Positions 15,217-39,793 of a stretch of 49,314 nucleotides of DNA are shown here, piece after piece; position 1 is the first letter of the stretch; every line of letters starts with the position of its first letter. The stretch comes from an uncultured Mucilaginibacter sp. Its GTDB lineage: Bacteria > Bacteroidota > Bacteroidia > Sphingobacteriales > Sphingobacteriaceae. The position numbers were made by a program, and so were the translations under genes. The DNA lies in contig CAJYSL010000449.1 in assembly GCA_913777515.1 (NCBI GenBank), positions 1 through 49,314 on the forward strand, read 5' to 3'. Under the pieces are notes generated by a model. That model ran no database searches, was not told the DNA's origin, and worked only from the letters and a program-made list of their open reading frames with translations.

Positions 15217-15221
15217 ACCTC

Positions 15222-18736: not shown

Positions 18737-18746
18737 AACCTCCGCA

Positions 18747-19823: not shown

Positions 19824-19835
19824 TCAGCAGTAAGC

Positions 19836-22073
19836 ATGGCAGTTCATATTTTAGGTATACGGCATCATGGTCCGGGTTCGGCGCGCAACGTCAAGGCTTT
19901 TCTCGAAAACGTAAAGCCCGATATTGTATTGGTTGAAGGTCCGCCTGAGGCTGATGCGATGTTGCAATGGGTGGGTAACGAGGGGCTGAAGCCGCCGGTG
20001 GCCTTGTTATGCTATCAGCCTGATGCCCCGCAGCATTCGGTATTTTATCCCTTTGCCGATTTTTCGCCCGAGTGGCAGGCTATTTTATACGCCCGTACGC
20101 ATCAAATCCATGTACGCTTTATGGATTTACCAGCGGGTAATCAGATGCTCATCGAAAAGCATCCTACCTTACCACCGGAAGTATCTGCCGAAGAACCGGC
20201 AACCATCAGCCGGGAGGCGATTGCTGTTGAAGAGATTCGCAGAAACCCGATAAGCTACCTGGCGGATGCCGCGGGCTTTACCGACAGCGAAAACTGGTGG
20301 GAGCATACCTTTGAGTACCGTCTTAATAACGACGAGGTGTTTGATGCTGTTACCGAGGCTATGCAGGCCCTGCGCGAAAGCCTGCCCCAAAAAAATGAGC
20401 GCTTGGAGCAATTACGTGAGGCCTACATGCGCCGTACCATCCGCCAGGCCGAAAAAGAGATGTTTCATACCATTGCGGTTATTTGCGGGGCATGGCATGT
20501 ACCGGCGTTAAAAGCCAAAGTATCGCAAAAAGAAGATAATGAGTTGCTAAAAGGGCTGCCTAAAACCAAAACCGAATGCACCTGGATACCCTGGACATTT
20601 AACCGGTTGAGTTTTTACAGCGGCTATGGCGCGGGCATCAACTCGCCGGGCTGGTATAACCACGTATGGCATCACCCCAATGATGATGGTACCTTGTGGA
20701 TGGCTGGTGTAGCGCAGCTGTTCCGTAAACAGCAAATGGATACCTCGGTAGCACATATTATCGAGGCTGTTAGGCTGGCCGGTTCACTGGCTGCCCTGCG
20801 TGGTTTACCCAAGGCCGGTTTAGAAGAACTGAACGAGGCTACGCTAACCGTGCTTTGCAACGGCGAAAGCTTCTTGCTCAAACTGGTGCACGACGAGTTG
20901 ATTGTGGGTCACCAGATTGGCGAGGTGCCTACCGATATACCTAAACCGCCTCTGCAGCTGGATATCGAAAAGCATCAAAAAAAGCTCAGACTGCCCGCCA
21001 CGGCTGATTTTAAAGATTACACGCTCGACCTGCGCAAGGATACCGACCTGGAGCGCAGTATATTTTTGCACCGCCTGCGTTTGCTGGGCATCAACTGGGG
21101 CAAACCACAATATACCTCGGGCAAAGGCACCTTTAAAGAACAATGGCGCCTGCAATGGGATCCGGGCTTTTCGGTAGATATTGTAGAGCGTGGCAATCTG
21201 GGCAACACGGTGGCCGAGGCAGCCGGCAACAGCGTATTAAATACCGGCCGTGCAGCTACCGACTTAAAAACCGTAAGCCGGCTGCTCGAGCAAGCTATCC
21301 CGGCAGAACTGCCCGATGCTATTGATGAGTTGATTGATCGCTTAAACAACCTGGCGGCGGCATCGGCAGATGTGATGGAACTGATGGAGGTGATTCCCAA
21401 CCTCATCACGGTAGCACGTTATGGCAACGTGCGTAAGACGGATGCCGCCATGGTGCAGGGTATTATCGGCAGTATGGTTACCCGTATTTGCATTAGTTTG
21501 CCCAGTGCCTGCGTAGCTATTGATGAAGATGCCGCCAACCTTCTGCTCGAGTTGTTTTACCGCCTGAACGACGGGCTGAACCTGTTGCAGCAAACCGAAC
21601 TCACCACACAATGGCAGCAGGTGCTGCACATATTGGTAAATAATAAAAATACATCGCCCGTTATAAGCGGTTATAGTACCCGCTTGTTGCACGACAGCAA
21701 ACAACTCCTGTCCGACGAATTGGTGCAGCATTTTAGCTATGCCATGTCGTCTACAGCGGCACCGGCAACTGCGGCGGCCTGGCTGGAGGGTTTTTTGCGG
21801 GGCAGCGGCACCTTGCTGCTGCTCGACCAAAACCTTTGGCAACTGATTGATAGCTGGGTATCCAATTTAAGCGAAGATGCATTTATGCAGGTGCTGCCTT
21901 TATTGCGGCGAACCTTTGCCAATTTTTCGGCACCTGAGCGGCGAAAGCTGGGAGAGAAGGCCCGTTCGGGCGGCGCAAGCCAGCAACAGGCAATGGCAGA
22001 GGTAGGCTTTGATGCGGACAGGGCCAAAATGGGTCTGCCGGTAATTATGGAACTTTTAAGGATTAAACTGTAA
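19836..22073 (+). CDS. DUF5682 protein with TraB/TIKI-like N-terminal motifs
   Basis: A 745-residue cytoplasmic protein that I place in DUF5682. The N-terminus has HILGIRHHGPGSA (residues 4-16) and VEGPPEAD (33-40). A second histidine motif, VICGAWHVPAL with His221, follows. The order of an early GxxH motif, an acidic strand motif and a late GA-H-P-L motif resembles the TraB/ChaN/TIKI/EreA-like hydrolase fold, so this may be a metal-dependent hydrolase (my inference). The remaining 500 residues are helical and of unknown role. It sits between the MoxR ATPase and the vWA protein with 12-nt and 5-nt gaps. As the only clearly enzyme-like non-ATPase member it is the best candidate effector of this operon. 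Confidence 0.85.
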   Translation: MAVHILGIRHHGPGSARNVKAFLENVKPDIVLVEGPPEADAMLQWVGNEGLKPPVALLCYQPDAPQHSVFYPFADFSPEWQAILYARTHQIHVRFMDLPAGNQMLIEKHPTLPPEVSAEEPATISREAIAVEEIRRNPISYLADAAGFTDSENWWEHTFEYRLNNDEVFDAVTEAMQALRESLPQKNERLEQLREAYMRRTIRQAEKEMFHTIAVICGAWHVPALKAKVSQKEDNELLKGLPKTKTECTWIPWTFNRLSFYSGYGAGINSPGWYNHVWHHPNDDGTLWMAGVAQLFRKQQMDTSVAHIIEAVRLAGSLAALRGLPKAGLEELNEATLTVLCNGESFLLKLVHDELIVGHQIGEVPTDIPKPPLQLDIEKHQKKLRLPATADFKDYTLDLRKDTDLERSIFLHRLRLLGINWGKPQYTSGKGTFKEQWRLQWDPGFSVDIVERGNLGNTVAEAAGNSVLNTGRAATDLKTVSRLLEQAIPAELPDAIDELIDRLNNLAAASADVMELMEVIPNLITVARYGNVRKTDAAMVQGIIGSMVTRICISLPSACVAIDEDAANLLLELFYRLNDGLNLLQQTELTTQWQQVLHILVNNKNTSPVISGYSTRLLHDSKQLLSDELVQHFSYAMSSTAAPATAAAWLEGFLRGSGTLLLLDQNLWQLIDSWVSNLSEDAFMQVLPLLRRTFANFSAPERRKLGEKARSGGASQQQAMAEVGFDADRAKMGLPVIMELLRIKL

Positions 22074-22078
22074 ACCAC

Positions 22079-23224
22079 ATGGCAGAAACCGAATCACACC
22101 ACCTGCGCAAATGGCGCCTCATACTGGGCGGCCACCAACAGGAGGGTACGCAATATGAATTAAGCGAAGCCGACATCAGGGTAGACCGTACCCTGGAGGC
22201 TTTGTATGATAGCGACCGCCAGGGCGGCCTGGGTGCATCATCGCCTAATGTAAGCCGTTGGCTGGGCGATATCCGGACGTTTTTCCCGTCGAGCGTGGTG
22301 CAGGTAATGCAGCAGGATGCCTTAAAACGGCTTAACCTTACCCAGATGCTGTTTGAAAAAGAGATGCTGGAAACCGTGGAGCCGGACATGCATTTGGTAG
22401 CCACGCTCATGACGTTGAGCCGCGTCATCCCTGATAAAACCAAAGACACGGCACGGCAGTTGGTGCGCAGTGTGGTAGACGAATTGATGAAAAAACTGGC
22501 TGAGCCTACCCGGCAGGCCATTACGGGCAGCTTAAACCGCAGCATCCGCAATACCCGGCCGCGCCACAACGAAATTAATTGGGGGGCAACCATCCTCAAA
22601 AACCTGAAACATTACCAGCCCGAATACAAAACCATTATCCCCGAAACGCGGCTGGGTTACGGCCGTAAACGGTCGTCGCTTAAAGACGTGATTTTGTGCC
22701 TCGACCAAAGTGGGTCGATGGGTGCATCCGTGGTATACTCGGGTATATTTGGCAGCGTAATGGCATCTATCCCCGCGGTAAAAACCAAAATGGTGGTGTT
22801 TGATACTGCCGTGGCCGACCTGACCGATGAGTTATCCGACCCGGTAGACCTGCTTTTTGGCGTACAACTGGGCGGCGGTACGGACATTAACGCCGCGTTA
22901 ACGTACTGCCAGCAAATCGTTACCCGTCCGGCTGATACCGTGATGGTGCTGATTACCGATTTATACGAGGGCGGCAACGTTGTCGAAATGCGTAAGCGTA
23001 TGGTTGAGCTGGTTACTTCCGGCGTGCAACTGGTGGTACTGCTGGCGTTAAATGATGATGGCGCACCGTCATACGACCATCGCAACGCGCAGTTTCTGGC
23101 CGATTTGGGTGTACCTGTTTTTGCCTGTACGCCCGATAAGTTCCCGGACCTGATGGCCGCTGCTCTGACCAAGCAGGATATTGCCTTATGGGCCGCTAAA
23201 GAAGAGCTGGTGATAAAAAAGTAG
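22079..23224 (+). CDS. vWA-domain protein, MoxR partner
   Basis: A 381-residue protein with a helical N-terminal half and a C-terminal von Willebrand A domain (about 200-370). The metal-ion-dependent adhesion site is intact: DQSGS at 209-213, a threonine in GGGTDINAAL, and the aspartate in VLITDLYEGG. It resembles the CoxE-like vWA proteins that pair with MoxR ATPases. It starts 5 nt after DUF5682 and ends the five-gene operon. Likely role: adaptor that couples ATPase action to a target. No signal peptide or membrane helix. Confidence 0.92.
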   Translation: MAETESHHLRKWRLILGGHQQEGTQYELSEADIRVDRTLEALYDSDRQGGLGASSPNVSRWLGDIRTFFPSSVVQVMQQDALKRLNLTQMLFEKEMLETVEPDMHLVATLMTLSRVIPDKTKDTARQLVRSVVDELMKKLAEPTRQAITGSLNRSIRNTRPRHNEINWGATILKNLKHYQPEYKTIIPETRLGYGRKRSSLKDVILCLDQSGSMGASVVYSGIFGSVMASIPAVKTKMVVFDTAVADLTDELSDPVDLLFGVQLGGGTDINAALTYCQQIVTRPADTVMVLITDLYEGGNVVEMRKRMVELVTSGVQLVVLLALNDDGAPSYDHRNAQFLADLGVPVFACTPDKFPDLMAAALTKQDIALWAAKEELVIKK

Positions 23225-23255
23225 TTATCCGACAGTACTTTACTGGTTTAATCGC

Positions 23256-23263
23256 TACATTTG
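23256..23263 (+). promoter_or_regulatory. Candidate -7 promoter element for the RNA ligase/HD-Pnk pair
   Basis: TACATTTG matches the Bacteroidota -7 consensus TAnnTTTG exactly and lies in the 166-nt gap between the vWA gene and the ligase start. I see no clear TTTG at -33, so strength is uncertain. It would allow the ligase/HD-Pnk pair to be transcribed separately from the operon before it. Confidence 0.45.
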
Positions 23264-23390
23264 CAGCAACAAATCGTTTTAAAGCCTTGCGTCATGTAAT
23301 TGCCTGCACATACTAAAATTTAGTAATCTTCTCCGCACCCTGATGGAGAGGAAAGGCAATTCTTATTTCTATTTATTTAATGACGACAAC

Positions 23391-24098
23391 ATGGCTATTA
23401 CTCAAAAATATGGTCGTACGTATCATTATCCGTTTTTGCCAGGCACAACCAGCGACGACAGGGTACAGCACGACTACTGGGCACATCTGCAAAAGATACC
23501 GACCCTTATACATACCGAAAAACTGGATGGCGAAAACAACTGCCTGAGCAGGCACGGGGTGTTTGCCCGTTCGCACGCTGCACCTACCGTTTCGCCCTGG
23601 ACCGAAAGTTTACGCCGTTTCTGGCAACTCATCAAACACGATTTGGGTTCGCTGGAAATATTTCTGGAAAACTTATACGCGGTGCATTCTATCGAATACC
23701 GGCACCTGCAGAATCATTTTTATGTGTTTGCTATACGCGAGCACGACCGCTGGCTAAGCTGGGAAGAAACCCAATTTTACGCCGCGATGCTTGATTTGCC
23801 AACGGTGCCGGTACTGAAAATAACAAACACACCGGCCGATTGCTATACGTTCGAAAAAGACATAAAGGAGATGGCATCTGGTCGAGGACTATTGCAGCCG
23901 CATGATGCTTTTTCCGGTGAACCGGCAACGATGGAAGGTATTGTAACCCGCAATGCAGATGGTTATACCACCGACGAATTTTCGAACAATGTTTTTAAAT
24001 ACGTGCGCAAAGGGCATGTAAAAACTGATGAGCACTGGACGCGCAATTGGCGCCGGGCCAAATTATTAAACGAAGGAGGTCACCATGTGGCAGTTTAG
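23391..24098 (+). CDS. ATP-dependent RNA ligase family protein
   Basis: A 235-residue nucleotidyltransferase-fold ligase. Motif I is EKLDGEN, with Lys44 as the predicted adenylated residue. Further motifs are FYVFAIRE (IIIa-like), MEGIVTR (IV) and VFKYVRKGH (V), in the usual order. The length fits small Rnl-type ligases that lack large accessory domains. ATG 23391 (MAITQKYGRTYHYPF) is preferred; an upstream ATG at 23343 would add 16 residues. Its last 14 nt overlap the HD-Pnk gene. It would seal 3'-OH/5'-phosphate ends prepared by HD-Pnk, so together they form a complete heal-and-seal repair pathway. RNA rather than DNA as substrate is inferred from the family. Confidence 0.9.
   Translation: MAITQKYGRTYHYPFLPGTTSDDRVQHDYWAHLQKIPTLIHTEKLDGENNCLSRHGVFARSHAAPTVSPWTESLRRFWQLIKHDLGSLEIFLENLYAVHSIEYRHLQNHFYVFAIREHDRWLSWEETQFYAAMLDLPTVPVLKITNTPADCYTFEKDIKEMASGRGLLQPHDAFSGEPATMEGIVTRNADGYTTDEFSNNVFKYVRKGHVKTDEHWTRNWRRAKLLNEGGHHVAV
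24073..24080 (+). promoter_or_regulatory. Near-perfect Shine-Dalgarno before HD-Pnk
   Basis: AAGGAGGT lies 4 nt before ATG 24085, inside the end of the ligase gene. Strong Shine-Dalgarno sequences are unusual in Bacteroidota, so this probably supports coupled re-initiation of HD-Pnk. Confidence 0.6.
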
Positions 24099-25191
24099 CG
24101 ATAACAAAGACTGGACTTACCTGGAAAGCCGTTTTGACTGGGTAAAGCGGATGAATGATGTGCCGCAAGACCCCATTTACCATGCCGAGGGTAATGTGGC
24201 TACTCATACCCGTATGGTGCTGGATGCACTGGCAACACAACCGGCTTACCTATTATTAACGCCGCAGCAAAAGGAGATTTTATGGACTGCTGCCTTGCTG
24301 CACGATGTAGAAAAGTACAGCACCACCGTTACCGAAATCGATGGGCGCATCACTTCAAAAGGTCATGCTAAAAAAGGCGCTTTAAAAGCAAGGCAAGTGA
24401 TTTACCGGGAGATACCTGCGCCTTTTGCCATCAGGGAGCAGGTGGTTGGCTTGGTTAGGTATCACGGTCTGCCGCTTTGGGTGTTTGATAAGCCCGACCC
24501 GGTAAAGGCTGTAATTACAGCCGGCATGGAGGTAAATACGGCCTGGCTGGCCCTGCTGGCCCGTGCCGATGTGCTGGGCCGTACCTGCGCCGACCAGGCC
24601 GAAATGCTGTATAAAATTGATTGCTTTGAGGCGCTTTGCCAAGAGCAGCAATGCTGGGGCGCAGCACGAACGTTTGCTACCGATGAAGCCAAAATGTATT
24701 ACCTGCAACACGAGGAAAATTACCCTGATTACATTCCTTTTGAGGAGCCTAAGGCGGAGGTAATTATGATGAGCGGGCTGCCTGGTGCCGGAAAGGATAG
24801 TTATGTTTGGCGGAATTACCGCGACCTGCCCGTGGTTTCGTTAGATGACATCCGGGTGCAAAAAGGTATTGCCCCAACAGATAAATCGGGCAATGGCCGC
24901 GTGATACAGGAAGCCAAAGAATTGGCCCGTAGCTACCTGCGTAAAAAGCAGCCCTTCGTTTGGAACGCCACCAACATTACCCGCCAGATGCGGATGCAAC
25001 TGGCAGAGTTATTTATGACGTATAAAATGAAAGTGAAAATCATTTACATCGAAGTGCCCTATACACAACTGATGCACCAAAACAGTAACCGCGAAGCGGT
25101 AGTACCCGGCATGGCGATAGAAAGGATGATTGACAAGCTCGAGATTCCTGCGCCCTGGGAAGCGCATACCGTTGAATATTTGGTTCAGTAA
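24085..25191 (+). CDS. HD-Pnk: HD phosphoesterase fused to 5'-OH polynucleotide kinase
   Basis: A 368-residue bifunctional RNA/DNA end-healing enzyme. The N-terminal HD domain (about 20-200) has His33, His41 and the His73-Asp74 pair in LLHDVEKY, and removes 2',3'-cyclic or 3' phosphates. The C-terminal P-loop kinase (about 222-368) has Walker A GLPGAGKD (231-238) and SLDDIR, where Asp254 and Arg257 match the DxxR pattern of T4-type polynucleotide kinases; it phosphorylates 5'-OH ends. This architecture matches Runella slithyformis HD-Pnk, which is known to occur in operons with an ATP-dependent ligase, as here (14-nt overlap). A terminator follows immediately. Confidence 0.92.
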   Translation: MWQFSDNKDWTYLESRFDWVKRMNDVPQDPIYHAEGNVATHTRMVLDALATQPAYLLLTPQQKEILWTAALLHDVEKYSTTVTEIDGRITSKGHAKKGALKARQVIYREIPAPFAIREQVVGLVRYHGLPLWVFDKPDPVKAVITAGMEVNTAWLALLARADVLGRTCADQAEMLYKIDCFEALCQEQQCWGAARTFATDEAKMYYLQHEENYPDYIPFEEPKAEVIMMSGLPGAGKDSYVWRNYRDLPVVSLDDIRVQKGIAPTDKSGNGRVIQEAKELARSYLRKKQPFVWNATNITRQMRMQLAELFMTYKMKVKIIYIEVPYTQLMHQNSNREAVVPGMAIERMIDKLEIPAPWEAHTVEYLVQ

Positions 25192-28730: not shown

Positions 28731-30437
28731 TTATCTCGATGTATTAAACCTGAAAATATCTTTATTCAATTGCTTGTCGGGTGGGTTAAAGTTTTGCAGT
28801 TCCTGGGCCATGGCTGGGTTTATCGATATATGTTCTGATATGATTTCGTAGCTCATATCCCTGATTGTTCCTGATAGTTCATTTTGTTTACGGTACTCGT
28901 ACTTCAACACCCTTAAAAATATTTCGCGGTTAGTTGCGCTTACCTCTTCTTTGTAAATCCGGGCTATTTCAACAGCGTAATGCTTGCTGTCTTCAATATT
29001 GTTAAAATAATTATTTAGGCAGTTAAACGCATCATGGGTACTGCGCCAACCCTCTATCAATAAACTTTGGGCACCTGCAATGTCGTTCATCTTTTGTTTA
29101 CGGATGAGTGAGGCTTTTAAAAACTGGTTGCGGTACCGGTAATGGTCTACCACCTTCTCAAAGTATTCCATAGCTTCATCATTCTTTTTTAAGGTGAGGT
29201 ATAAGTCGCCTACCTTTTCGTAATTGTGAAGTTCTTTGTAAAGTTCTATCGCCTCCAGGGTAGCATTCGCCTTCTCGTAGTATTCGGCCGCTTTTTGTTT
29301 GTCTTTTAAATATTGCAGATATATGGCTGCTGCCTCGGCATAAAAGCCGCCCTCAACCAGCGTCTCTGCCGCCTTTTGGTAGTTTTTTAGTAGCTTCAGG
29401 TAAATAAAAGCAGCTTTGTAATAGTCTTTTTGCTTTATTAAATCCTGAGCCGTTTTTTCGTACTGAGCCTGTAATTCGATCTGCTTGTCGCCTATATTGG
29501 CCGAACCACCGCCTGTTCGTCCGCTGCTGCCGTAACTGCCGCCAAGCGATAGGTTAGACCATTGATTATTTAAATTTAAACCACCCGAGCCTGAGCCGCG
29601 GTTAGTGCCATCATTGTCTATGGGGATGGCACGTTTTAGCGCTTCATCAGGGTCTGTTTTGAATAAGTCGAGCAACCGGTCAACCTCGTTCTGGTTACGT
29701 TTTTCCAGGTCGTGATAGTCGTTTTGTATAGCGCCGCCAAAATTAGCGCCACCACCAAACAAGCCGCCAAATACGGAGCCTAAACCACCAAGCATGCTCA
29801 TGCCAGCTCCGCCAAGCATACCGCCACTGCCCGTCGTATCGCCAAAAAGATTTTTGTACATGGCAAGCTTCATTTGCTCTGCCTTGGTTAAAGGTTTCGA
29901 TTCATCTTCTTCCTTCGGAACTGCATCCTGCAACTGCTTGATGAATGCTTCGGGGACCACAGGCTCCACCTGGAAGCTCCGGATTTCGCCAGGTATAAAC
30001 ACTCTTTCGGCGGGCATAGTCAATTGCCTTGGTACGTTTAACGGCGCCTCAATCAGGGTTGTCCAGTCAATCGGCTCCGTCAATTCGCAAAATCCGTATA
30101 CCGGATGAAAAAAGTGCTTTTTGCTAGCAAACAGCGTTTGTATTTCGTCAACGGCGATAGCCGGAAATACTTCCGATTTTTCGGGAATAAACAACGTATT
30201 ATAAATCGACTGGCAATATTCGTTGCTGTAAATATCGCGGACGGTTCGCTGAGTAATAAGCAAACAGCCGGCAACCGTATTAACGGCTGTTCCGGGTATG
30301 GCATAGAAGTCCACATCTTGAAGCGATAGTCCCATCAGCTGTACCTGCTCGACCCAATAACGAATAGAAGAGCCTTTGATAAATACGCCCAGTAGCGGGT
30401 ATTTGCTTAAAGCAGCCGGTTTAATTTTTAGTTCCAT
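28731..30437 (-). CDS. bpX-type ternary-system protein with Gly-rich linkers and TPR-like repeats
   Basis: A 568-residue last gene of the second MoxR/vWA operon. Residues 1-160 form a domain I assign by context to the bpX families of MoxR-vWA-beta-propeller ternary systems. Residues 203-235 are strikingly hydrophobic and glycine-rich (GGLGSVFGGLFGGG), and a second Gly/Ser-rich stretch spans 280-313. Residues 325-500 are TPR-like or clathrin-repeat-like helices (YYKAAFIYLKLLKNYQKAAE; YEKVGDLYLTLKKNDEAMEYF). It has no signal peptide. Its start overlaps the preceding vWA gene by 17 nt. It may be a scaffold or a membrane-active component; the exact bpX number is not assigned. Confidence 0.8.
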   Translation of the reverse strand: MELKIKPAALSKYPLLGVFIKGSSIRYWVEQVQLMGLSLQDVDFYAIPGTAVNTVAGCLLITQRTVRDIYSNEYCQSIYNTLFIPEKSEVFPAIAVDEIQTLFASKKHFFHPVYGFCELTEPIDWTTLIEAPLNVPRQLTMPAERVFIPGEIRSFQVEPVVPEAFIKQLQDAVPKEEDESKPLTKAEQMKLAMYKNLFGDTTGSGGMLGGAGMSMLGGLGSVFGGLFGGGANFGGAIQNDYHDLEKRNQNEVDRLLDLFKTDPDEALKRAIPIDNDGTNRGSGSGGLNLNNQWSNLSLGGSYGSSGRTGGGSANIGDKQIELQAQYEKTAQDLIKQKDYYKAAFIYLKLLKNYQKAAETLVEGGFYAEAAAIYLQYLKDKQKAAEYYEKANATLEAIELYKELHNYEKVGDLYLTLKKNDEAMEYFEKVVDHYRYRNQFLKASLIRKQKMNDIAGAQSLLIEGWRSTHDAFNCLNNYFNNIEDSKHYAVEIARIYKEEVSATNREIFLRVLKYEYRKQNELSGTIRDMSYEIISEHISINPAMAQELQNFNPPDKQLNKDIFRFNTSR

Positions 30438-32934
30438 TTTTTATGGTTTTGATAAATGGATGAATGTATCGCTCAAAAAACAGCGTTGGGTGCAAAATTT
30501 CTGTGGCGGCGTTTGGGTCGTTTTCCATGCTTTCTATAGTAACTATAGCGCCTGCCTGCTCCAGCTTAAACTTAAAATCGCCAGCTTTACGATGCGATGC
30601 ATTTTGCCATACGGATTGAGGGGCATGATCTACCAACGCTTTAGCATCTTTTAAACCAATACCTGTAAACTCCTTAATGATCTTTACTATCTCAAGTGGC
30701 TTACTGCCCGCCGATTTTAAAAATACGTTAACCCTTGGCGATTTATAATAATAAGGGTTGCCCGCAAATGCTCCGGCAGTAGCTATGCCTAAACTGCTAT
30801 CTAACACGGCGGGTACATAAATATGCGGTATTTTTTTGTCGCTGCTTTTAAAAATAAAATAACCTGCGCTTTTAATTTCGATAATGCTGCCATCGGCAAA
30901 AAGAAAATTGCTTTTGGATATTTTTTCGGCCTGTATTGTTGCTTTTGAAAAAAATGAATCCAGCTTTATAATGCCATTGCTGTTTACGTATAACTCGTGC
31001 GTATTAAAAACAAAGTTGCCTTTATCATTAATAGTTAGCTGCTGAACGTTTTTTAATTGTTTCCAGGCATCAAAAAACTTTTGCTGCAGTACGCCTAAGT
31101 CTTTTTGGCGCGATTGATGGTTTTCTAAAATCACCTTCGGGAGTACCGCGCTATTGGTAATTGTTCCGTCGAGCGAAATAGCCCAGCTATTTTCGCGCAA
31201 TACGTAATAAAATTGGTTATTGTAAAATACAAAATTGTTATAGGCATATCTCCACTCCTCAAACCAAAATATTTTCCGCTCATTGTTGCTTAGGTTCAGC
31301 AAAAGTATTCTTCTGTCTTTTTGTGCAAAAGCAAGCAAAACGTGGGCGCCATCGTCCAGCAAACCCATTTCCGCAGTGTTTGACGTAAAGGGGAGGTCCT
31401 GAACGACCAGTTCCCAGCCCTTTTCGTTTTTCTTCGATTCAATGTCATACAAACGGTAAAGCTTTTTATCACTTGTCATCAGGTAGATATTATCATCAGC
31501 CGTGCTCATCATTGTACCCGGAATTTGAGGCATTTTAAGCAGAATAGGCACACGGGTAGCGCTTGGGCCACCTTGTTTGCTGCGCTCGGGTTGGTTCCAC
31601 AGTTCTTCTAACGGTAACTGGAAATCCTGTACATGCTTTTTGTTGTTTTGCTGCCGCCTGTATAACGATACTCTGCCCTGTGTGGTAATGTATATCCAGT
31701 AGCTGAAAAAATCATGATGGTCGCTCATCAGTTTCAGCATTTCCGGCGACTGCAGATTATCTGCTGCCGAGATAAAAAATACTTCGGCTTTGCCTTTGTA
31801 CTCTTTAATAAAACTTTCCAAACCGCGGGCTGGGTGCAGGCAGCTCTCTACATGCCGTAAACTTACTATCAGGTCGTTAACCGTATTAAAGGTAACCGGC
31901 TGGCAGGTATTACCTACCGAAAATGCAATGCACTCAATATCAGTTTTAGGGTGCCTGGCAATAGCCAGCATTACTGCGTAAGCAACCGTTTTAGGCGTAC
32001 CCCAGGTTTTGATAGAAACATCAATAACCAAAACGCGCTTTAAATTATTGCTGATTGGCGGTACCTCGCGGTTGAGGTACAGCGCCTCGTTGTTGGCCAG
32101 TCTGGATAAAAACACCAGGTCATCATTAGCAAACTCCGAAATCAGCAGTTTATCAAAATCGCCTTTGTTGGTTAAATCAGAAACACCGCCCAAGGGTTGC
32201 GTACTGGGTAACGAGTTATGCAGCGGGATATGCAACGCACCCCACAGGTGCTTAATGAGCACGCCAATCGGGCGGGTTGCATGCTCGTCGGTAAGCAGCT
32301 GTAACCAGTCTTCTTTCTTTTTTTGCTGAAGGTTGCCGTTTAAATCTTTAAGTTCTTCCTCAATATTTAACGCCGAACTTACTTTAGCCAGCAGGGTTTT
32401 AATATCCGGAAAATTTTTACTGAGTAAGGCAATCGGCAGCAGATCGCGTTTGTAGCGGTCTTTTTTTAACAAAGGTTTTACGTCTGCTTGCTGATTGTCG
32501 GCTTTGAGGGTACGGTAATCGCTCAAGATACGCTTTGCCGCCTTGGCCGACAGCCGGTTGTGGCACGACTCAAAAATGGTTTGCAAAAGCATGAGCCGTT
32601 TGGTACCCTGTTTATAGTCGGCCGGTAAGGCAGACAGCATTTCTAAAAACTCAAATGCCTGCTCTACCGATTTATCGCCACGCTCCACATCAGACGCAAT
32701 GATGGTACGTACATGACCGATGTCCGTAGCGCCATTAGCATTGGTAGCCATAATGGCAAGCAATACCGAGCCAAAGGGCGGAATGCCTTGAATGGATAAT
32801 TGCTGTAAAACGGATTCGACCAGCTCGCGGTAAGCAATGGTGTTGCCACCCGGAATGGCAACCACTTCTTTATGGTCTTCCCACTGCCAAAAATAATCCT
32901 GATAAGGCTGAAAATATTCCTGGTAAGTCATCAT
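30421..32934 (-). CDS. vWA / beta-propeller (bpX) protein with C-terminal ribosomal L7/L12-like domain
   Basis: An 837-residue core protein of the ternary system. Residues 1-290 are helical. A vWA-like domain starts near 298 (KRVLVIDVSIKTWG, Asp305); its metal site is degenerate because the second Ser of DxSxS is Lys. Residues about 480-720 show repeated beta-strand units (DDNIYLMTSDKKLYRLYD; FVFYNNQFYYVLREN) consistent with a beta-propeller. Residues 734-802 closely follow the L7/L12 C-terminal domain pattern: LEIVKIIKEFTGIGLKDAKA, then LVDHAPQSVW and KLEQAGAIVTIE. It overlaps the upstream gene by 4 nt (ATGA). Its role is likely substrate or ribosome recognition coupled to the MoxR ATPase. 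Confidence 0.87.
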   Translation of the reverse strand: MMTYQEYFQPYQDYFWQWEDHKEVVAIPGGNTIAYRELVESVLQQLSIQGIPPFGSVLLAIMATNANGATDIGHVRTIIASDVERGDKSVEQAFEFLEMLSALPADYKQGTKRLMLLQTIFESCHNRLSAKAAKRILSDYRTLKADNQQADVKPLLKKDRYKRDLLPIALLSKNFPDIKTLLAKVSSALNIEEELKDLNGNLQQKKKEDWLQLLTDEHATRPIGVLIKHLWGALHIPLHNSLPSTQPLGGVSDLTNKGDFDKLLISEFANDDLVFLSRLANNEALYLNREVPPISNNLKRVLVIDVSIKTWGTPKTVAYAVMLAIARHPKTDIECIAFSVGNTCQPVTFNTVNDLIVSLRHVESCLHPARGLESFIKEYKGKAEVFFISAADNLQSPEMLKLMSDHHDFFSYWIYITTQGRVSLYRRQQNNKKHVQDFQLPLEELWNQPERSKQGGPSATRVPILLKMPQIPGTMMSTADDNIYLMTSDKKLYRLYDIESKKNEKGWELVVQDLPFTSNTAEMGLLDDGAHVLLAFAQKDRRILLLNLSNNERKIFWFEEWRYAYNNFVFYNNQFYYVLRENSWAISLDGTITNSAVLPKVILENHQSRQKDLGVLQQKFFDAWKQLKNVQQLTINDKGNFVFNTHELYVNSNGIIKLDSFFSKATIQAEKISKSNFLFADGSIIEIKSAGYFIFKSSDKKIPHIYVPAVLDSSLGIATAGAFAGNPYYYKSPRVNVFLKSAGSKPLEIVKIIKEFTGIGLKDAKALVDHAPQSVWQNASHRKAGDFKFKLEQAGAIVTIESMENDPNAATEILHPTLFFERYIHPFIKTIKNGTKN

Positions 32935-33674
32935 AACGCCTCCGGTAATTGGTTTAGGCTTGCGCGGAACGAGCCTATGGTTAAGGGCCTCAGTTGCGCT
33001 TTAGGTACAGTAAAATAGTTAGAGTCGGGGTTAAACACTATCCAAAATAACTTTTTGGGGTTGAGCAGCGTATTTAATGACGACAACAGCGCGTGCAGAT
33101 CAAAAGCGTAACCGGCCGGGATCATAAAGTCGCTCTCGGTGTAGTGTACCTCTCCATGCAACGGCAATAAGGGTGCGCCAACCAAAAAGGCATATTGCTT
33201 ATCCACAATAGTCCACCTGATATTTTTTAACCTGATGGCCGGCGCCGTTTCTACATACTTTTGAAGCTGGCTAAGCGGAACAAGCATTGCTGAAGCTTTT
33301 TTTTCATGCGCTGATTTAACCAGGCCGACAGTCACCTTACCGGGTATACCGAAATAATTATGGTTAAAGGCCGGCAGTTTAACAGGCAAGGCCCTGTCAA
33401 TGGGCGACCACAGCAAAGCCGGTATGTTGCGCTCGGGCAGGTAGCCATCCTTTAAAAATAGCTTACCACCGCGCGCCTCATACATTTGCTTGTCGGGCAG
33501 GCTAAGCACTTCAGCTGCCTTAATCTGGTCGGCTGTAAAATCTTTCACCCAGATGTAACCAGCCTCGTGCGCCGCTTTCAGATTTTTCCAGTGCCGTATT
33601 GCGCCAAGATGCTCTTTGCTGCGAATGTTTAGCCTCAGGTAAAAAACTATACTGCCTGCAGTATCTTTTGCCAT
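32931..33674 (-). CDS. bpX-type accessory protein of the ternary system
   Basis: A 247-residue soluble protein lying between the MoxR ATPase (28-nt overlap) and the vWA/beta-propeller protein (4-nt overlap). It is mixed alpha/beta with conserved-looking segments AGYIWVKDFTADQIKAAEVL, IPALLWSPIDRALPVKLP and HYTESDFMIPAGYAFDLHAL. I recognise no enzyme motif. Context places it among the bpX families found only in MoxR-vWA-beta-propeller systems (possibly bpX2, not certain). Probably an adaptor. Confidence 0.8.
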   Translation of the reverse strand: MAKDTAGSIVFYLRLNIRSKEHLGAIRHWKNLKAAHEAGYIWVKDFTADQIKAAEVLSLPDKQMYEARGGKLFLKDGYLPERNIPALLWSPIDRALPVKLPAFNHNYFGIPGKVTVGLVKSAHEKKASAMLVPLSQLQKYVETAPAIRLKNIRWTIVDKQYAFLVGAPLLPLHGEVHYTESDFMIPAGYAFDLHALLSSLNTLLNPKKLFWIVFNPDSNYFTVPKAQLRPLTIGSFRASLNQLPEAL

Positions 33675-34780
33675 AATAACTCAATCTCGTTTTGTATGTG
33701 CTGCTTGTGCTCGTAGTTTTTTATCCAGTTGCTGCGGGTTTGTATATAGCGCAGCTTATCCTTAATTACGTTTTGCTCCTCAAAAGACAGGTTATCATTC
33801 TCGAATCTGCCTTTCAGGTGCAACACTTCTTTCATCAGCTCTTCGGCATTAGGTGCATTGTTTAAAACCGCCTGCGGGTGGGCATTAGCTGAGCTTTCTT
33901 TTTCGATAATCAGGTTTATCATGCCCGATAGTATTTCTATTTGCTCCTCGGTATCCCAGATGTATTTTATTACCCACAAATCTGAGGTAATGGCTTCCTG
34001 CCGGCCACAGGTGATGGCGCTGGCCGCCAGTAAGTTCTGAATTTTTACCGCCCTGCGGTCAGATACCTTGATGCCTGTATTCCGCAGGTTATGAACCAGA
34101 TCCACATATTGCTTTCTGATAGGCGAGAGGTCGACCGTTTTCCGTAACGCCTGCAATTCCCTGATTTCGGTTGGTGTAATTTGAGGTTTTTCTTGCCCTT
34201 CTTTGTTTTGGAAATTCCAGCCCGCCATCAGCACATGCTCCAATAAATCGGTATCTACATAATCGCATTTAACACGTACCAAAAAGCGGTCGAGTAGGGC
34301 GTTGAGGGCCTCATCCTCGGGCAGTACGTTACTGGCGCCAATAAACATCAGGGCAGGCAGGTTGCGGGTTTCTTTACCCCGCCTGAAAATCTTTTCGTTC
34401 AAAGCCAGCAATAAGCTGTTAAGGATGGCGCTATTGGCGTTAAAAATCTCGTCTAAAAACACCATTGAGGCTTCGGGCATCATGCCCTCGGTATTGGTAA
34501 CCAGGTTGCCGTCTTTGAGTGCCCTGATATCAAACGGACCAAAAATTTCGTTAGGCTCGGTAAAGCGGGTTAACAGGTATTCGAAGTTTTTACCATCGAT
34601 GATACAGTTAGACAGCGACCTTACGATAGCACTTTTGGCCGTACCGGGCGGGCCCAGCAAAAAGGCATTTTCGTTGGCGATGAGGCATACGCCAAGAAGG
34701 TCAATAATTTCGTTTTTACCAACAAAGGTGTCTTTTACAGAAGCGAGTACGGCGTTAAGCCTTTGGATATGATTATTCAT
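33647..34780 (-). CDS. MoxR-family AAA+ ATPase (second, ternary system)
   Basis: A 377-residue MoxR/RavA-like AAA+ ATPase. Walker A is GPPGTAKS (43-50), Walker B is MVFLDE (106-111, canonical) and sensor 1 is FIGASN (146-151). The MoxR insert (RFTEPNEIFGPFDI) is present, and a helical C-terminal region (about 285-375) contains LKGRFENDNLSFEEQNVIKD. ATG 34780 is chosen because it starts the conserved NNHIQRLNAVL segment and overlaps the upstream stop by 8 nt; ATG 34822 adds 14 unlikely residues. It should drive the remodelling activity of the ternary system. It is clearly a different subfamily from the MoxR at 18747-19823. Confidence 0.93.
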   Translation of the reverse strand: MNNHIQRLNAVLASVKDTFVGKNEIIDLLGVCLIANENAFLLGPPGTAKSAIVRSLSNCIIDGKNFEYLLTRFTEPNEIFGPFDIRALKDGNLVTNTEGMMPEASMVFLDEIFNANSAILNSLLLALNEKIFRRGKETRNLPALMFIGASNVLPEDEALNALLDRFLVRVKCDYVDTDLLEHVLMAGWNFQNKEGQEKPQITPTEIRELQALRKTVDLSPIRKQYVDLVHNLRNTGIKVSDRRAVKIQNLLAASAITCGRQEAITSDLWVIKYIWDTEEQIEILSGMINLIIEKESSANAHPQAVLNNAPNAEELMKEVLHLKGRFENDNLSFEEQNVIKDKLRYIQTRSNWIKNYEHKQHIQNEIELLWQKILQAV

Positions 34781-35414
34781 GAGTGTGTGCAGGTTTAAAG
34801 TCTTTCCACAAATCGGCGGCAAACAGGCCCAGGCTCGCGCTTACGGAAACGGTGAAAAAAGGATGCGTAGCCAACGGCAACCGGGCGTGTTTTATAATGC
34901 GATCAGTATATAGCTGTTTCAGGCACGGATCGTTATAGACTTCATTCGGGTTGATTTTTTGAGGATTAAGCGGGTAGCGCACGCCCGAATAATGCCAGGC
35001 GATAAGTAATTCCAGCAAATGCAGAATCAGGCTGTCATCAGGGTCGATAATGCTCAACTGGCTGATGATATCGGGCAGAAAACGCAGGCAAAGGTCGGCC
35101 GAGAGGACGGCCGAAGCATCCGTTTCTAGCGGGTAATGGCCGAGCAGTTCGCGCACCTGTGTTAATTTACTCTCGCGGTACAGGATAAGTTGTGCAGCAA
35201 GATAAATGGTTTTGGCCGCCCACAGCGCTGCTTCCGGGTTAAATGGTGGTGGTGTGTAAGGATATTCCAGTATTTCGCGTTCGTATTCGGTCCGCAAAAA
35301 ATTCATGACCTGCGTTTCTTCGGGCTGGCTTATTTCTATCACGTTGCCAAACAGCATTACCTCTTCCTGGAGCCGGAGGTGCCTAAGCATTTTAAGGAAT
35401 AGGTTGTTTTGCAT
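34773..35414 (-). CDS. Small helical first protein of the bpX ternary operon
   Basis: A 213-residue, mostly helical cytoplasmic protein with no signal peptide. Recognisable features are an acidic start (EEVMLFGNVIEISQPEE) and repeated Leu-rich helices (LWAAKTIYLAAQLILYR; LLGHYPLETDASAVLSADLC). It opens the five-gene operon and overlaps the MoxR start by 8 nt, so it is translationally coupled. Such small leading proteins are typical components of MoxR-vWA-bpX systems, but I cannot name the family. No promoter consensus is obvious upstream. Confidence 0.78.
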   Translation of the reverse strand: MQNNLFLKMLRHLRLQEEVMLFGNVIEISQPEETQVMNFLRTEYEREILEYPYTPPPFNPEAALWAAKTIYLAAQLILYRESKLTQVRELLGHYPLETDASAVLSADLCLRFLPDIISQLSIIDPDDSLILHLLELLIAWHYSGVRYPLNPQKINPNEVYNDPCLKQLYTDRIIKHARLPLATHPFFTVSVSASLGLFAADLWKDFKPAHTHE

Positions 35415-35789: not shown

Positions 35790-38195
35790 TTATCGTTTGA
35801 TGGGCAGTAGCTTTATGTTGTAAGCTTTCAATTTGGCACTAAATGTCTGGGTGGAATCTTTATGAAACTTTTCTTTCAGATCGCGCATAATATTTTCTAT
35901 GCTTCGCTTGGACAGCACCCAGTTCATCGGGACTTCGCGTTTATTTTTACTCAAAGGCTGATCTACTATCAGACCATCATAGGGCGAATGAATAAACTGG
36001 TTTAGTTGGTTAATTGCCGTCCGGCTGCGCCCACCCCGGGTGTTTACAATTCCATCAACGATCTCAGTTATTTCGTTGGCAAAACGGATGTTTTTTGCAA
36101 CTGTATTGGTATCGTTGCTAAAGCGGAGGTATAATACAATAGGATAAACCAAATTAAAGTTAGAGGCTTTCTTTTTAAGGAGGCTCAATAACTCAAAAGT
36201 AGATGCCGCTCCGTAATTTTCTACGTAACCACCATCAACATAATGGTAGCGTCCGCCGGAGGTATCAATTTTTGCCGCAGGCGAAAACAACGGAAAGCGT
36301 GTGCTGAAATTTACTGCAGTGCTGTAAGTGACATTTTGCACTTTTTTGGCAAGTAAATCGCGGTTCGCGCGGTAGGCCAAGCTATCGGGCTCAAAATTGC
36401 TGATCCAGCATTGGTAACCCGATTCTACCTCAGTTGTGTTGATGATAAGCATAGGCTGTAGAGCGCCTGTATCTTTTTTAAGGAAATCGTCGCTAAAGCG
36501 GTTTTTTTCTTTACCGGTACGCACCTCATTGTAAGCCGATGTCCATGAGTCTTCCAATGCGATGGCACGGTCAAACTGCTTAACGTGCCAGGGTAAAAAC
36601 AAATTTAAGAATTCGCCAAACAGCATTTTACCAAGAATGGGAGATAATGAATCGTGTTCAAAAAAAATTATAGCCTTTGAGGTGTCCGATCCCGCATTAA
36701 CGTTTCTACTTGAGTCACCAAACGCTTTGGCATTATAGTAGGATAAGCCTAACATACCGCCCGATACACCCGACATAGAAAATATGGATCTTTTTACATT
36801 GATGTTGTTTTCTTTCATCTCTTGCTGTAAGCGCGAAAGGTAAAGACCGGTATAAGCTCCAGTACGAAAAGCACCACCCTCGGCGCAAACAAATACAACG
36901 GGATATTTGGTGATTCCTTTATAAGCCAAGTCCATGTCGGTTTTATATTGTTTAAACCATTTATTAAACTGGCTGACGGCTTTCGGTCGGGCATCATTAG
37001 CAGTGCATCTCATGTTTGCTGGGTGATCCTGGTTAAAATAGGTAGACAAGAGCAGCAAAACGATCAAAATAAATCGGCAGGATATAAAGGTATTGCGTAG
37101 CCAGGCGTAATCTATAAAAAGCAAGCCGGAATAAAGCCCAGAGTAGCAGGCAAATGCAAAGGCTAGGAGGGCAGGAGCGCCAACTGTAGCAAAAAAATCA
37201 CCATCAGCGGGCATAAACGAAAAAAACAGAAAAATAATAACCGCCAATAAAACTATTATTTTAAGTTGAAAATGTAATACTGGGAAAAAGCCTGTCGGGA
37301 TTGAATACCGCCATTTATAGCTGTCGCCGCGGCCGTTTATAAGCGGACTGCCTTCTTCTAAATTAAAAAGTTGAGGTATAAGACGGCGCTCGGACATAAC
37401 CTCCTTATCTTGCGGAAACCTTGTCCTGATAGGTGAATCATGGCTGGTAAAATATTCAGTAAAGTTTTTGAGAGTTCTTCGGTACTCGCCTATAAAATTT
37501 GTTTCTTTAGGAAAATCAAATACAAACTCGTTATAAATGCCATATAAGCGGTTGATCCAGTTAAATTCGGCAGGCGATAAAGAGCGGGCTCCTAAATAAG
37601 TGCGTGCGGCTTCGTTGGGATTCCGTGATCGCCGGTGAAAGTAAAAGTAACTGAGGCCTCTGAAAATAAAGTACAGCAAAAATCCGAATATGATAAAGCA
37701 GGCCGTCTCTACTAACTCAAATTTCCTTTCGGTACTAAAATAAATAAACACCAGTGCTATAAGAACGAAGGTGCACGGCCAAAAAAGGCAGAATGCAGCT
37801 AAAAAGCGCTGAATAATTTTGCGGGCATATATCCTGGAGTCGCGCAGGCTCTTACCGGAGTTATCGGCAATACTGGTAGCATACCTCACGCTAAACTCAG
37901 CCATCATGCTCCAGATAATTATTGCTGAAAGAAAAAGGGACAATTGCCAGAAATTTCCTTCGGCCATTTTTTCGATGACCAGAAAAAGAGTATCTCTGCC
38001 CTGTGGTAAAACCAGGAAAATTAAACCCGACAAAATTGCAGGGATTAATACAAATCCGGTATTCTTAGCTATAAGAAAAAAATCAGCAACCGAATTTTTG
38101 AACACAAAGGTATCGGCTAATGCTTTTTTCTCTTCTTCAATTTCGCAGACGGCTACTACCACCGGTCCGAAAATCCAGGTCAGGAATTTTTTCAT
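35790..38195 (-). CDS. Polytopic membrane patatin-like phospholipase
   Basis: An 801-residue integral membrane protein. The first half has about seven membrane helices (for example TGFVLIPAILSGLIFLVLP, FLAAFCLFWPCTFVLIALVF, FILIVLLLLSTYF). From about residue 425 comes a patatin lipase domain with the oxyanion segment CAEGGAFRTGAYTG, the nucleophile Ser478 in MSGVSGG, and the catalytic Asp654 in VDGGYVENYG. The expected activity is acyl hydrolysis of membrane lipids. It is a single gene with its own terminator, on the same strand as and upstream of the bpX ternary operon. Patatins are frequent effectors in conflict systems, but this link is by proximity only. It could equally serve in lipid turnover. 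Confidence 0.88.
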   Translation of the reverse strand: MKKFLTWIFGPVVVAVCEIEEEKKALADTFVFKNSVADFFLIAKNTGFVLIPAILSGLIFLVLPQGRDTLFLVIEKMAEGNFWQLSLFLSAIIIWSMMAEFSVRYATSIADNSGKSLRDSRIYARKIIQRFLAAFCLFWPCTFVLIALVFIYFSTERKFELVETACFIIFGFLLYFIFRGLSYFYFHRRSRNPNEAARTYLGARSLSPAEFNWINRLYGIYNEFVFDFPKETNFIGEYRRTLKNFTEYFTSHDSPIRTRFPQDKEVMSERRLIPQLFNLEEGSPLINGRGDSYKWRYSIPTGFFPVLHFQLKIIVLLAVIIFLFFSFMPADGDFFATVGAPALLAFAFACYSGLYSGLLFIDYAWLRNTFISCRFILIVLLLLSTYFNQDHPANMRCTANDARPKAVSQFNKWFKQYKTDMDLAYKGITKYPVVFVCAEGGAFRTGAYTGLYLSRLQQEMKENNINVKRSIFSMSGVSGGMLGLSYYNAKAFGDSSRNVNAGSDTSKAIIFFEHDSLSPILGKMLFGEFLNLFLPWHVKQFDRAIALEDSWTSAYNEVRTGKEKNRFSDDFLKKDTGALQPMLIINTTEVESGYQCWISNFEPDSLAYRANRDLLAKKVQNVTYSTAVNFSTRFPLFSPAAKIDTSGGRYHYVDGGYVENYGAASTFELLSLLKKKASNFNLVYPIVLYLRFSNDTNTVAKNIRFANEITEIVDGIVNTRGGRSRTAINQLNQFIHSPYDGLIVDQPLSKNKREVPMNWVLSKRSIENIMRDLKEKFHKDSTQTFSAKLKAYNIKLLPIKR

Positions 38196-38223
38196 TGCTA
38201 AAGGTTAGTTATTTAAATGTAGC

Positions 38224-38275
38224 AAAAGGCGGCAGCTGTATCAATACATCTTTTTGTTTTAACAAGGCTGCCGCC
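38224..38275 (-). terminator. Intrinsic terminator after the Dyp peroxidase gene
   Basis: GGCGGCAGC (38228-38236) and GCTGCCGCC (38267-38275) make a perfect 9-bp GC stem with a 30-nt loop. TTTTGCT follows on the minus strand. It sits 36 nt past the Dyp stop. Confidence 0.72.
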
Positions 38276-38311
38276 GGCATTTAATCAACCGAGTGGTTTA
38301 ATATTCGTTAA

Positions 38312-39793
38312 TTACTCAGTAGGAGGAATATTGTTCAGCGATTTAAGAAAAGCAATGCTCGGCGTAAACAAATACTCGCCGCCGCGATTGGTTACTGCAT
38401 GCGGAAAATCAAACGCTTTTGCATCATTAAGAGCCGGCTGGCCCCATTTAACCGGAAGCACTTTTTTACCGCTGCTGGCTGCTTGCGAGATAATGGCATC
38501 ATCGGTACCCAGGTGATGCCCTGCAATATTTCCATCATTAGCCCAATGCTGTTGTAAAATGAGAAACTGGCTATCGATATTGCTTTGATAACACATAAAC
38601 AGCAAACCTACACCGCCCGAGGGCTGATTGTCGTTTAACATTTCATCTGTAACCTCAATAACATCCTGTGGAAAACGGCCAATATCATCATAAGGTATAC
38701 CCCTGCGGGTAATGCGTTGTGCGCTTACGTCGCCGGCTATCGAGTCGCCATCCCTCGGGTTCATAATTCGGGTGTGGGCAAAAAACGGGCATCTGGAAAT
38801 ATCGTTAAGGCCATAATTAAAATTATTTGCTGTTGATTGCGGACCTTGCGGCAAACTATGCAACTCTACAGGAGTGCCATCCTCATGCCTGCCTACCACC
38901 ATGGAACCACCGAGTGAGCGGTCGGGTATATTTTTTTCATTAATTACACACGGAACTACGTTGCCGTTAGTAGGAGTACCACAATCCTCTAGATCATCTC
39001 CCTCTGCTTCTTTAAACTTTTTGACATCCTGCTCCAGTTTACGGAAAACCAAGTAGCTGCCGAAACTGTCTACATCAGCCGGGCCGTCTTTGACCAAAAG
39101 TCTGTCTAAGTTGGTTTTGTCGTCCCATTTATCGGTGCCTTGCTGTTTCTTAATATCTTCGTCCAGATAAAGCGGCTGACTGATGCCATCGGCGTAACCG
39201 AAATGTTCAATGCCGCCGCCTATCACGCCTTTCTTCTTTAATCCTTTACCCATCTGCGAAAGCAGGAAATGGGCGAACAGATTGATTGCCTTAGTCAATT
39301 TTAGAGAAAGAGTGCTGGCAGTGACTAAATCATCGTCGGCTACTAAAATCATCATGTCAACAGGCCGGTTTTTGTCGTTAAAGCCGGCTGTCCAACGGTC
39401 AGTATCATCCAGTAACTTGTCTTTATCGGCTCGCATGCCGCCAAGAAACGATTGTGATGCTTTGGGCATAACGTCATCAAGGCCCAGAGCCCGGTAACCG
39501 TGTGCAGAAAGGGATAATGTGACGATAGGGCCACCGTCAGTTTGATTAAGTTTAAATTCTCTTGTGCGGTCCAACTGCTGTTTTGCGCTGGTGATTTTAT
39601 TATTTCGCGCAAAGTCCGCAATCCAGGCTTTGGCTTGCTCCGCTTTGTTCCTGTCGAACGAAAAAAACAGATGAAAGGCAAAGTCTCTGCCGTGGCCTTT
39701 TAAAATGTTTGCCTGCAGGTTTTCTAACATCTGGGTAAAGGGCGGCGCATTTTTAACGTTCGACTGATTGAGCTTCAGGGGGATTTCCATCAT
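38312..39793 (-). CDS. Dyp-type haem peroxidase
   Basis: A 493-residue dye-decolourising peroxidase that oxidises organic substrates with hydrogen peroxide at a haem centre. The family signature GxxDG is present as GYADG, with the distal acid Asp202. The proximal haem ligand is predicted to be His340 in CPFFAHTRIMNPRD. The protein is long and has no signal peptide, so it is either cytoplasmic or encapsulated; no encapsulin gene is in the window. Two ATGs (39793, 39790) are adjacent and either may start translation. It has its own terminator and seems monocistronic. The physiological substrate is unknown. Confidence 0.92.
   Translation of the reverse strand: MMEIPLKLNQSNVKNAPPFTQMLENLQANILKGHGRDFAFHLFFSFDRNKAEQAKAWIADFARNNKITSAKQQLDRTREFKLNQTDGGPIVTLSLSAHGYRALGLDDVMPKASQSFLGGMRADKDKLLDDTDRWTAGFNDKNRPVDMMILVADDDLVTASTLSLKLTKAINLFAHFLLSQMGKGLKKKGVIGGGIEHFGYADGISQPLYLDEDIKKQQGTDKWDDKTNLDRLLVKDGPADVDSFGSYLVFRKLEQDVKKFKEAEGDDLEDCGTPTNGNVVPCVINEKNIPDRSLGGSMVVGRHEDGTPVELHSLPQGPQSTANNFNYGLNDISRCPFFAHTRIMNPRDGDSIAGDVSAQRITRRGIPYDDIGRFPQDVIEVTDEMLNDNQPSGGVGLLFMCYQSNIDSQFLILQQHWANDGNIAGHHLGTDDAIISQAASSGKKVLPVKWGQPALNDAKAFDFPHAVTNRGGEYLFTPSIAFLKSLNNIPPTE

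What the first reader, a model, noticed from the sequence alone, without database searches (positions are those of the whole stretch)
30529..30735. Ribosomal L7/L12 C-terminal-like domain fused to a vWA/beta-propeller protein
Residues 734-802 follow the L7/L12 CTD: LEIVKIIKEFTGIGLKDAKA, a LVDHAPQSV helix start and a KLEQAGAIVTIE final strand. On the ribosome this domain recruits translational GTPases. In this system it may mimic the stalk, dock onto translation factors or detect stalled ribosomes. Together with rtcB-prfH this gives two translation links in one window.
Basis: partly seen in the sequence, partly recalled or inferred. Interest (0 to 1): 0.7.

Follow-up and report, generated by a model that had tools for sequence, protein, structure and literature searches.

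The report
Ribosome-stalk-like domain in MoxR–vWA system
A piece that closely resembles the arm of the bacterial ribosome that grabs translation factors is built into a suspected bacterial immune protein; the fusion was already reported in print, but its grabbing surface is still largely kept here, so whether it grips the translation machinery can be tested directly.

Summary
The 837-aa protein at 30421-32934(-) carries a bL12 C-terminal domain (PF00542, 65 bits, cut-off 25.9) at residues 736-801, inside bpX1, in a five-gene bpX4-bpMoxR-bpX2-vWA-bpX3 operon. This is the published beta-propeller MoxR-vWA ternary system; L12/ClpS-domain insertions in its vWA component were reported for several Bacteroidetes by Kaur et al. 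2020, who called the domain 'multimerizing'. So the fusion is not new. What I add: of 35 near-complete proteins compared, the window included, 12 match PF00542, at three different points in or beside bpX1. Basic residues at 70/73/84 of the factor-binding helices are kept together in 10 of 12 non-redundant fusions, the window included, while most other basic positions drift. But K65 is lost in the window, the nearest relative outside the genus lost all three, and the test on the five positions named before the count is only suggestive (p 0.11). Best reading: a stalk-like docking surface for translational GTPases or other stalk clients; binding is not shown. Structure prediction was too poor to add proof. 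The rtcB-prfH genes are a separate opposite-strand cluster, seen beside this operon only in the window and one genus relative, within the limited stretches examined.

The parts
30532..30729 (-). bL12 (L7/L12) C-terminal domain, residues 736-801 of the vWA protein
   Evidence: PF00542 65.3 bits, E 6.2e-18; PDB bL12 chains
30421..32934 (-). vWA component of the beta-propeller MoxR-vWA ternary system, 837 aa; bpX0 at 30-184, bpX1 (profile 2-59 of 82) at 675-732, then L12 CTD, then terminal helix
   Evidence: divergent MIDAS-like DVSIK at 305-309
30739..30912 (-). bpX1 domain, first 59 of 82 positions; the L12 CTD interrupts it
28731..30437 (-). bpX3 with TPR-like repeats: third component; overlaps the vWA gene by 17 bases
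   Evidence: PF19919 140.9 bits; TPR matches under their cut-offs
32931..33674 (-). bpX2
   Evidence: PF19918 255.4 bits
33647..34822 (-). bpMoxR AAA+ ATPase with P-loop GPPGTAKS
   Evidence: PF20030 335.7 bits; motif
34773..35414 (-). bpX4
   Evidence: PF19920 250.7 bits

Best explanation
The vWA component of a beta-propeller MoxR-vWA ternary system carries an inserted bL12 C-terminal domain. SHOWN: the domain's identity by sequence, its place, its recurrence at three points in or beside bpX1, and retention of basic residues at positions 70/73/84 in most copies. INFERRED: it works as a displayed docking module whose positive face on helices 4 and 5 binds what the ribosomal stalk binds, that is translational GTPases (EF-Tu, EF-G, IF2, RF3) or another stalk client, so that the MoxR-driven complex is brought to, senses or blocks the translation machinery during infection. 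INFERRED further: MoxR ATP hydrolysis remodels the vWA-propeller protein so that the module is exposed only when triggered.
For: PF00542 at 65.3 bits over nearly the whole profile. The face is described as a highly conserved, positively charged site in helices 4 and 5 that binds IF2, EF-Tu, EF-G and RF3 (PMC6753160, passages). Of 12 non-redundant fusions, basic residues stand at position 70 in 10, 73 in 11, 84 in 10, and at all three in 10, against 1, 2, 5, 8 and 2 of 12 at 92, 95, 100, 107 and 120, the other positions basic in at least 94% of the 17 rplL. Helix 4/5 basic positions that I named before the count, though after seeing the sequences (65, 70, 73, 81, 84): 41 of 60 kept; the five others, chosen from the count table: 18 of 60 (rows share ancestry, so the Fisher p of 5e-5 is optimistic; by position, one-sided Mann-Whitney p 0.03). 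Site rates: 73, 84 and 70 rank 1st, 4th and 6th slowest of 30 polar positions; exact test for this triad p 0.007, but the triad was picked after seeing the counts. Three insertion points (after bpX1 profile position 59, near 29/30, and just before bpX1) suggest a module that is re-used or moved. Phage proteins up to 724 aa also embed bL12 domains, with homologues lacking them and with EF-G/EF-Tu residues kept (PMC6375957, passages).
Against: No binding data. K65, a residue tied to EF-Tu binding (PMC10602876, passages), is proline in the window and basic in only 4 of 12. G031, the nearest relative outside the genus, has none of the three basic residues, L094 has one, and the strongly diverged insert of L034 none. 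For the five positions named before the count, the exact rate test gives p 0.11 among 16 invariant polar positions and 0.07 among 30 polar ones. Polar positions off that face are as slow (D88, S99) or nearly so (K59), and basic residues stand at 59 in 8 of 12 and 107 in 8 of 12. Net charge of helices 4-5 is not raised: -2 to +4, rplL +1 to +3. 19 of 35 proteins carry neither L12 nor TonB_C and presumably work.
Confidence: 0.42

Rival explanations
1. Integrated decoy: the domain imitates the stalk so that an invader's protein that targets or replaces bL12 binds the immune protein instead and triggers it. The same face is kept, but the partner is foreign.
For: Phages encode bL12 domains; the abstract says the viral bL12 tested enters 70S ribosomes, while a later passage says tagged viral bL12 ribosomes could not be purified (PMC6375957). 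Kaur et al. compare inactive host-enzyme copies in sister systems with decoys (PMC7159879 section 35, part 1). The domain is present, absent and placed differently among relatives.
Against: No invader protein known to meet it; dN/dS of 0.12 between the window and G534 shows no sign of rapid change there.
Confidence: 0.2
2. Multimerization or scaffold module, as Kaur et al. [quoted passage not shown]
For: Published reading; multimeric assembly is a theme of these systems (PMC7159879 section 35, part 1).
Against: In bL12 the dimerisation domain is the N-terminal one and the CTD binds GTPases (PMC6753160, passages); only the CTD is here. A pure scaffold would not be expected to keep the basic residues at 70/73/84, which I recall as exposed; exposure was not measured.
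Confidence: 0.15
3. Internal adaptor: the basic face binds an acidic groove of another bpX component, unrelated to translation.
For: The five-gene order is the same in every locus whose contig was long enough, so a partner is always at hand; Foldseek on the weak domain model lists ClpS, a peptide-binding adaptor fold, after L12 (all E above 0.05).
Against: Relatives without the domain keep the same operon.
Confidence: 0.13
4. Tolerated insertion without a stalk-related job, decaying in some lineages.
For: Degenerate copies in L024 and L034; no PF00542 match in 23 of 35 proteins.
Against: Low dN/dS in the window-G534 pair; sites 73, 84, 70 about as slow as core positions.
Confidence: 0.1

Closest known systems
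vWA-MoxR subsystem 4, beta-propeller-containing ternary systems (Kaur, Burroughs, Iyer, Aravind 2020, PMC7159879)
   Same: bpX0 and bpX1 vWA component, bpMoxR with GXXXTAKS P-loop, third component with TPR; [quoted passage not shown]
   Different: Nothing in kind. Here the insertion points are placed on bpX1, the factor-binding residues are counted, and TonB_C is seen as another added domain in two relatives; the parts of the paper that I saw (section 22, part 1 of section 35, 12 found passages) give none of these
Ribosomal protein bL12 (L7/L12)
   Same: C-terminal domain, most of the factor-binding face
   Different: No bL12 N-terminal dimerisation domain; lies in an 837-aa protein; K65 lost
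Phage proteins with embedded bL12 domains (Mizuno et al. 2019, PMC6375957, passages; author name recalled)
   Same: bL12 domain embedded at varying places of larger proteins, homologues without it, factor-contact residues kept
   Different: Phage proteins, not MoxR-vWA systems; sequences not compared here

Membership tests
Beta-propeller MoxR-vWA ternary system (subsystem 4) | vWA component with bpX0/bpX1 and C-terminal propeller | tested here: met
   PF19915 132.6 bits, PF19917 59.1 bits; the propeller fold itself and a vWA Pfam match were not obtained
Beta-propeller MoxR-vWA ternary system (subsystem 4) | MoxR with P-loop GXXXTAKS | tested here: met
   bpMoxR 335.7 bits, GPPGTAKS
Beta-propeller MoxR-vWA ternary system (subsystem 4) | Third component with variable N-terminus, TPR and propeller | tested here: inconclusive
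   bpX3 140.9 bits and TPR matches under their cut-offs; a propeller in it was not shown
Beta-propeller MoxR-vWA ternary system (subsystem 4) | Role in conflict with invaders | not testable with these tools
   Predicted by Kaur et al.; no PADLOC match at E 0.001 for 7 proteins of the region
PF00542 L7/L12 C-terminal domain | Sequence over the curated cut-off | tested here: met
   65.3 against 25.9 bits
PF00542 L7/L12 C-terminal domain | Three-dimensional fold of the CTD | tested here: inconclusive
   Domain model pLDDT 58.9, Foldseek top four are L12 chains but E 0.06 to 0.17; full-length model gives strand-helix-helix-helix-strand at 736-791 with pLDDT mostly under 50
Functional bL12 factor-binding site | Conserved positive residues of helices 4 and 5 | tested here: inconclusive
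   Window keeps K70, K73, K81, K84, loses K65; 10 of 12 fusions keep 70/73/84; test on the five positions p 0.11
Functional bL12 factor-binding site | Binds translational GTPases | not testable with these tools
   needs a binding assay
Ribosomal bL12 | N-terminal dimerisation domain and full-length L12 model | tested here: not met
   TIGR00855 54.1 against 84.4 bits, matching only model positions 50-124

The most novel reading that the evidence does not exclude
A bacterial immune-type MoxR-vWA machine uses a borrowed ribosomal-stalk domain, found at several points of its C-terminal propeller segment, to dock onto translational GTPases or stalk clients, so that the state of translation is the thing sensed or shut down in systems that were said to have no conventional effector.
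Probability: 0.35. Interest if true: 0.75.

Novelty: new member of a known kind. Interest (0 to 1): 0.42.

Why it matters
Kaur et al. [quoted passage not shown] If the L12 domain still binds translation factors, it would give them a concrete target, and a simple pull-down decides it. It would also correct the published description of the domain as a multimerizing one.

Tried and rejected
Structure: AF2 of the full protein with only three permitted relatives (A2) gave pLDDT 52.2, pTM 0.30; the domain alone gave 58.9, with pLDDT under 50 over much of its C-terminal half. I give both little weight and ran no fold search on the full model. A two-row alignment for the domain (A1) was misaligned at its end and not used.

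Close relatives in viral contigs: none confirmed. Genome contigs gave 3. Plasmids: 49 records matched, 20 listed; one is a bpX operon (Hymenobacter yonginensis), the other 19 listed start at residue 736, that is cover the L12 part only. Phage records: 19 matched the domain, 4 of them annotated as rplL; the rest are unannotated and were not examined.

Domain tree: unresolved, with long branches; one origin of the 13 fused domains not rejected (p-AU 0.30), nor shown. So three independent captures are not claimed. On the tree of the rest of the protein, L12 presence needs at least 5 changes, gains and losses not told apart.

rtcB-prfH as part of the same system: not supported; other strand, own cluster (RtcB, PrfH, SWIM, DUF5691, AAA_5, DUF5682, VWA_CoxE, RNA ligase, HD/AAA_33), seen beside the bpX operon only in the window and G534. 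Limit: the stretches end between 0 and about 17 kb past bpX3; the nearest genes of that region, which start within about 2 kb of bpX3 in the window, were not found in other genomes either. G203 has an RtcB 34% identical to the window's just after bpX3, followed by two-component genes.

Rows left out: L039 (near-copy of the window) and L034 (too diverged) from residue counts; basic positions 59 and 108 from the kept-versus-lost comparison, as they are basic in 76% and 65% of rplL (8 and 4 of 12 fusions); L066 and L067 from the rplL set (my pattern missed them, so 17 of 19 were used); L032 and L098 (fragments) from the tree; L102 and L103 (repeat stretches); G652/L023 (bpX0 hit under the cut-off) never followed. 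L030's weak hit was judged spurious. Pfam at E 0.01 counts 12 of 35 and does not match L024, which my own profile finds at 1.2e-5; L024 is among the 12 non-redundant fusions of the residue counts.

Full report
Check of the observation. Pfam finds bpX0 (30-184, 132.6 bits), bpX1 (675-732, profile 2-59 of 82, 59.1 bits) and Ribosomal_L12 (736-801, profile 2-67 of 67, 65.3 bits, E 6.2e-18, cut-off 25.9). Of 19 PDB sequences matched at E up to 1, 18 are bL12 chains. The domain is not a chance match.

Setting. Five ORFs on the minus strand overlap each other: bpX4 (34773-35414), bpMoxR (33647-34822), bpX2 (32931-33674), the vWA protein and bpX3 with TPR-like repeats (28731-30437). The MoxR P-loop is GPPGTAKS. 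This is the beta-propeller MoxR-vWA ternary system of Kaur et al. 2020; [quoted passage not shown] A paper search for MoxR, ribosomal protein L12, ClpS and conflict systems (at least three of four) returned that paper and one on jumbo phages that lacks the L12 term (listing only). The fusion is therefore in print.

Relatives. bpX0 occurs, the window's genome counted, in 3 of 151 genomes of the family, 13 of 395 of the class and 9 of 300 of the order, 8 over the cut-off; bpX1 in 10 of 395 of the phylum. These samples overlap. Smaller searches gave 3 of 36, 1 of 7, 1 of 9, 1 of 13, 4 of 42 and 2 of 64. I compared 35 near-complete vWA proteins, the window included; all 35 match bpX0 and bpX1, 12 match PF00542 at E 0.01 and 2 match TonB_C. 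My own L12 profile finds a further, diverged one in L024, and L034 has an insert at the same place that is too diverged to call.

Where the domain sits. In the window and most others it follows bpX1 profile position 59, between a FAGN.YY motif and the terminal helix (site A). In L044 it splits bpX1 near position 29/30 (site B). In L093, L094 and L095 it lies just before bpX1 (site C), while L096 of the same genus lacks it (Pfam shown for L093, the other two by sequence). TonB_C in L028 and L101 follows the end of bpX1. On the tree of the remaining protein, L12 presence needs at least 5 changes and site C forms a starred clade of 3; site A (10 rows, L034 included) lies in a 15-row group with 1 row of site B, 1 of TonB_C and 3 of none. 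The domain tree cannot say how many captures there were.

The factor-binding face. The literature places it on helices 4 and 5, positively charged (PMC6753160, passages), with K65 and K70 tied to EF-Tu binding (PMC10602876, passages). As the window's own genome (84% complete) shows no separate rplL, I compared with 17 rplL of relatives' genomes. Twelve non-redundant fusions are basic at K65 in 4, K70 in 10, R73 in 11, K81 in 6 and K84 in 10, and at 92, 95, 100, 107 and 120 in 1, 2, 5, 8 and 2; at 59 and 108, less conserved in rplL, in 8 and 4. All three of 70/73/84 are basic in 10 of 12. The window reads P65 L66 V69 K70 K73 L80 K81 D82 K84. Site rates put 73, 84 and 70 near the core positions, but D88, S99 and K59, not in the named set, are similarly slow; the exact test for the five positions named before the count gives p 0.11 (0.07 against all polar positions), and for the triad picked afterwards p 0.007. 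I had seen the sequences by eye before naming the five. The signal is moderate. It is absent in L024 (G031), the nearest relative outside the genus, and weak in L094.

Selection. Between the window and G534 the L12 segment has dN/dS 0.12, the rest 0.10: it is being kept in this pair.

Structure. Neither model is of use for proof. Foldseek on the weak domain model ranks four L12 chains first and ClpS next, all at E above 0.05. Fold membership rests on the sequence profile.

Mechanism. The reading I find most economical is a displayed stalk-like docking face in a MoxR-remodelled complex. The partner may be translational GTPases, another stalk client, or an invader's protein that targets the stalk. 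The published multimerizing reading fits bL12's N-terminal domain better than the CTD found here. Binding, triggering and defence were not shown.

The rtcB-prfH link. RtcB (13777-15216) and PrfH (15222-15836) belong to a plus-strand cluster with its own AAA_5 and VWA_CoxE genes. It is syntenic in G534 but was not seen near the operon in the other stretches examined, G203's 34%-identical RtcB aside; those stretches are short. It does not make a case for a shared system.

Verdict. Real domain, known fusion, partly supported functional idea with a clear test.

Noticed in passing
L028 4338-6923 and L101 2224-4893: vWA/bpX proteins of two genera of one family carry a TonB_C domain after bpX1 and no L12 match: another added domain at the same end.
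   Followed up: partly
window 13777-25191: Plus-strand cluster RtcB, PrfH, SWIM, DUF5691, AAA_5 MoxR-like, DUF5682, VWA_CoxE, RNA ligase, HD/AAA_33: a second MoxR-vWA pair with RNA repair genes, convergent to the bpX operon and syntenic in G534.
   Followed up: partly
L112 4163-5323: An RtcB 34% identical to the window's lies directly downstream of bpX3 in G203, same strand, followed by two-component genes.
   Followed up: partly
L104 3456-11292: A bpX operon on a plasmid of Hymenobacter yonginensis, vWA protein without a detected L12 domain.
   Followed up: no
window 35790-39793: Upstream of bpX4 on the same strand: a protein with a Patatin match just under the cut-off and a Dyp-type peroxidase; no match to them in the relatives' stretches examined.
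   Followed up: no
window 32008-32022, residues 305-309 of the vWA protein: MIDAS-like motif is DVSIK, lacking the second serine of DxSxS (recalled motif); 11 of 37 rows read D[VI]S[LI]KNWG, 4 more are close variants, and my pattern did not match the other 22.
   Followed up: no
LR756501.1 and LR756503.1, 187965-188159: 735-kb uncultured phage records encode an L12-CTD-like stretch, 38.5% identical, E 3e-3; phrog_26927, function unknown, also matches the domain.
   Followed up: no
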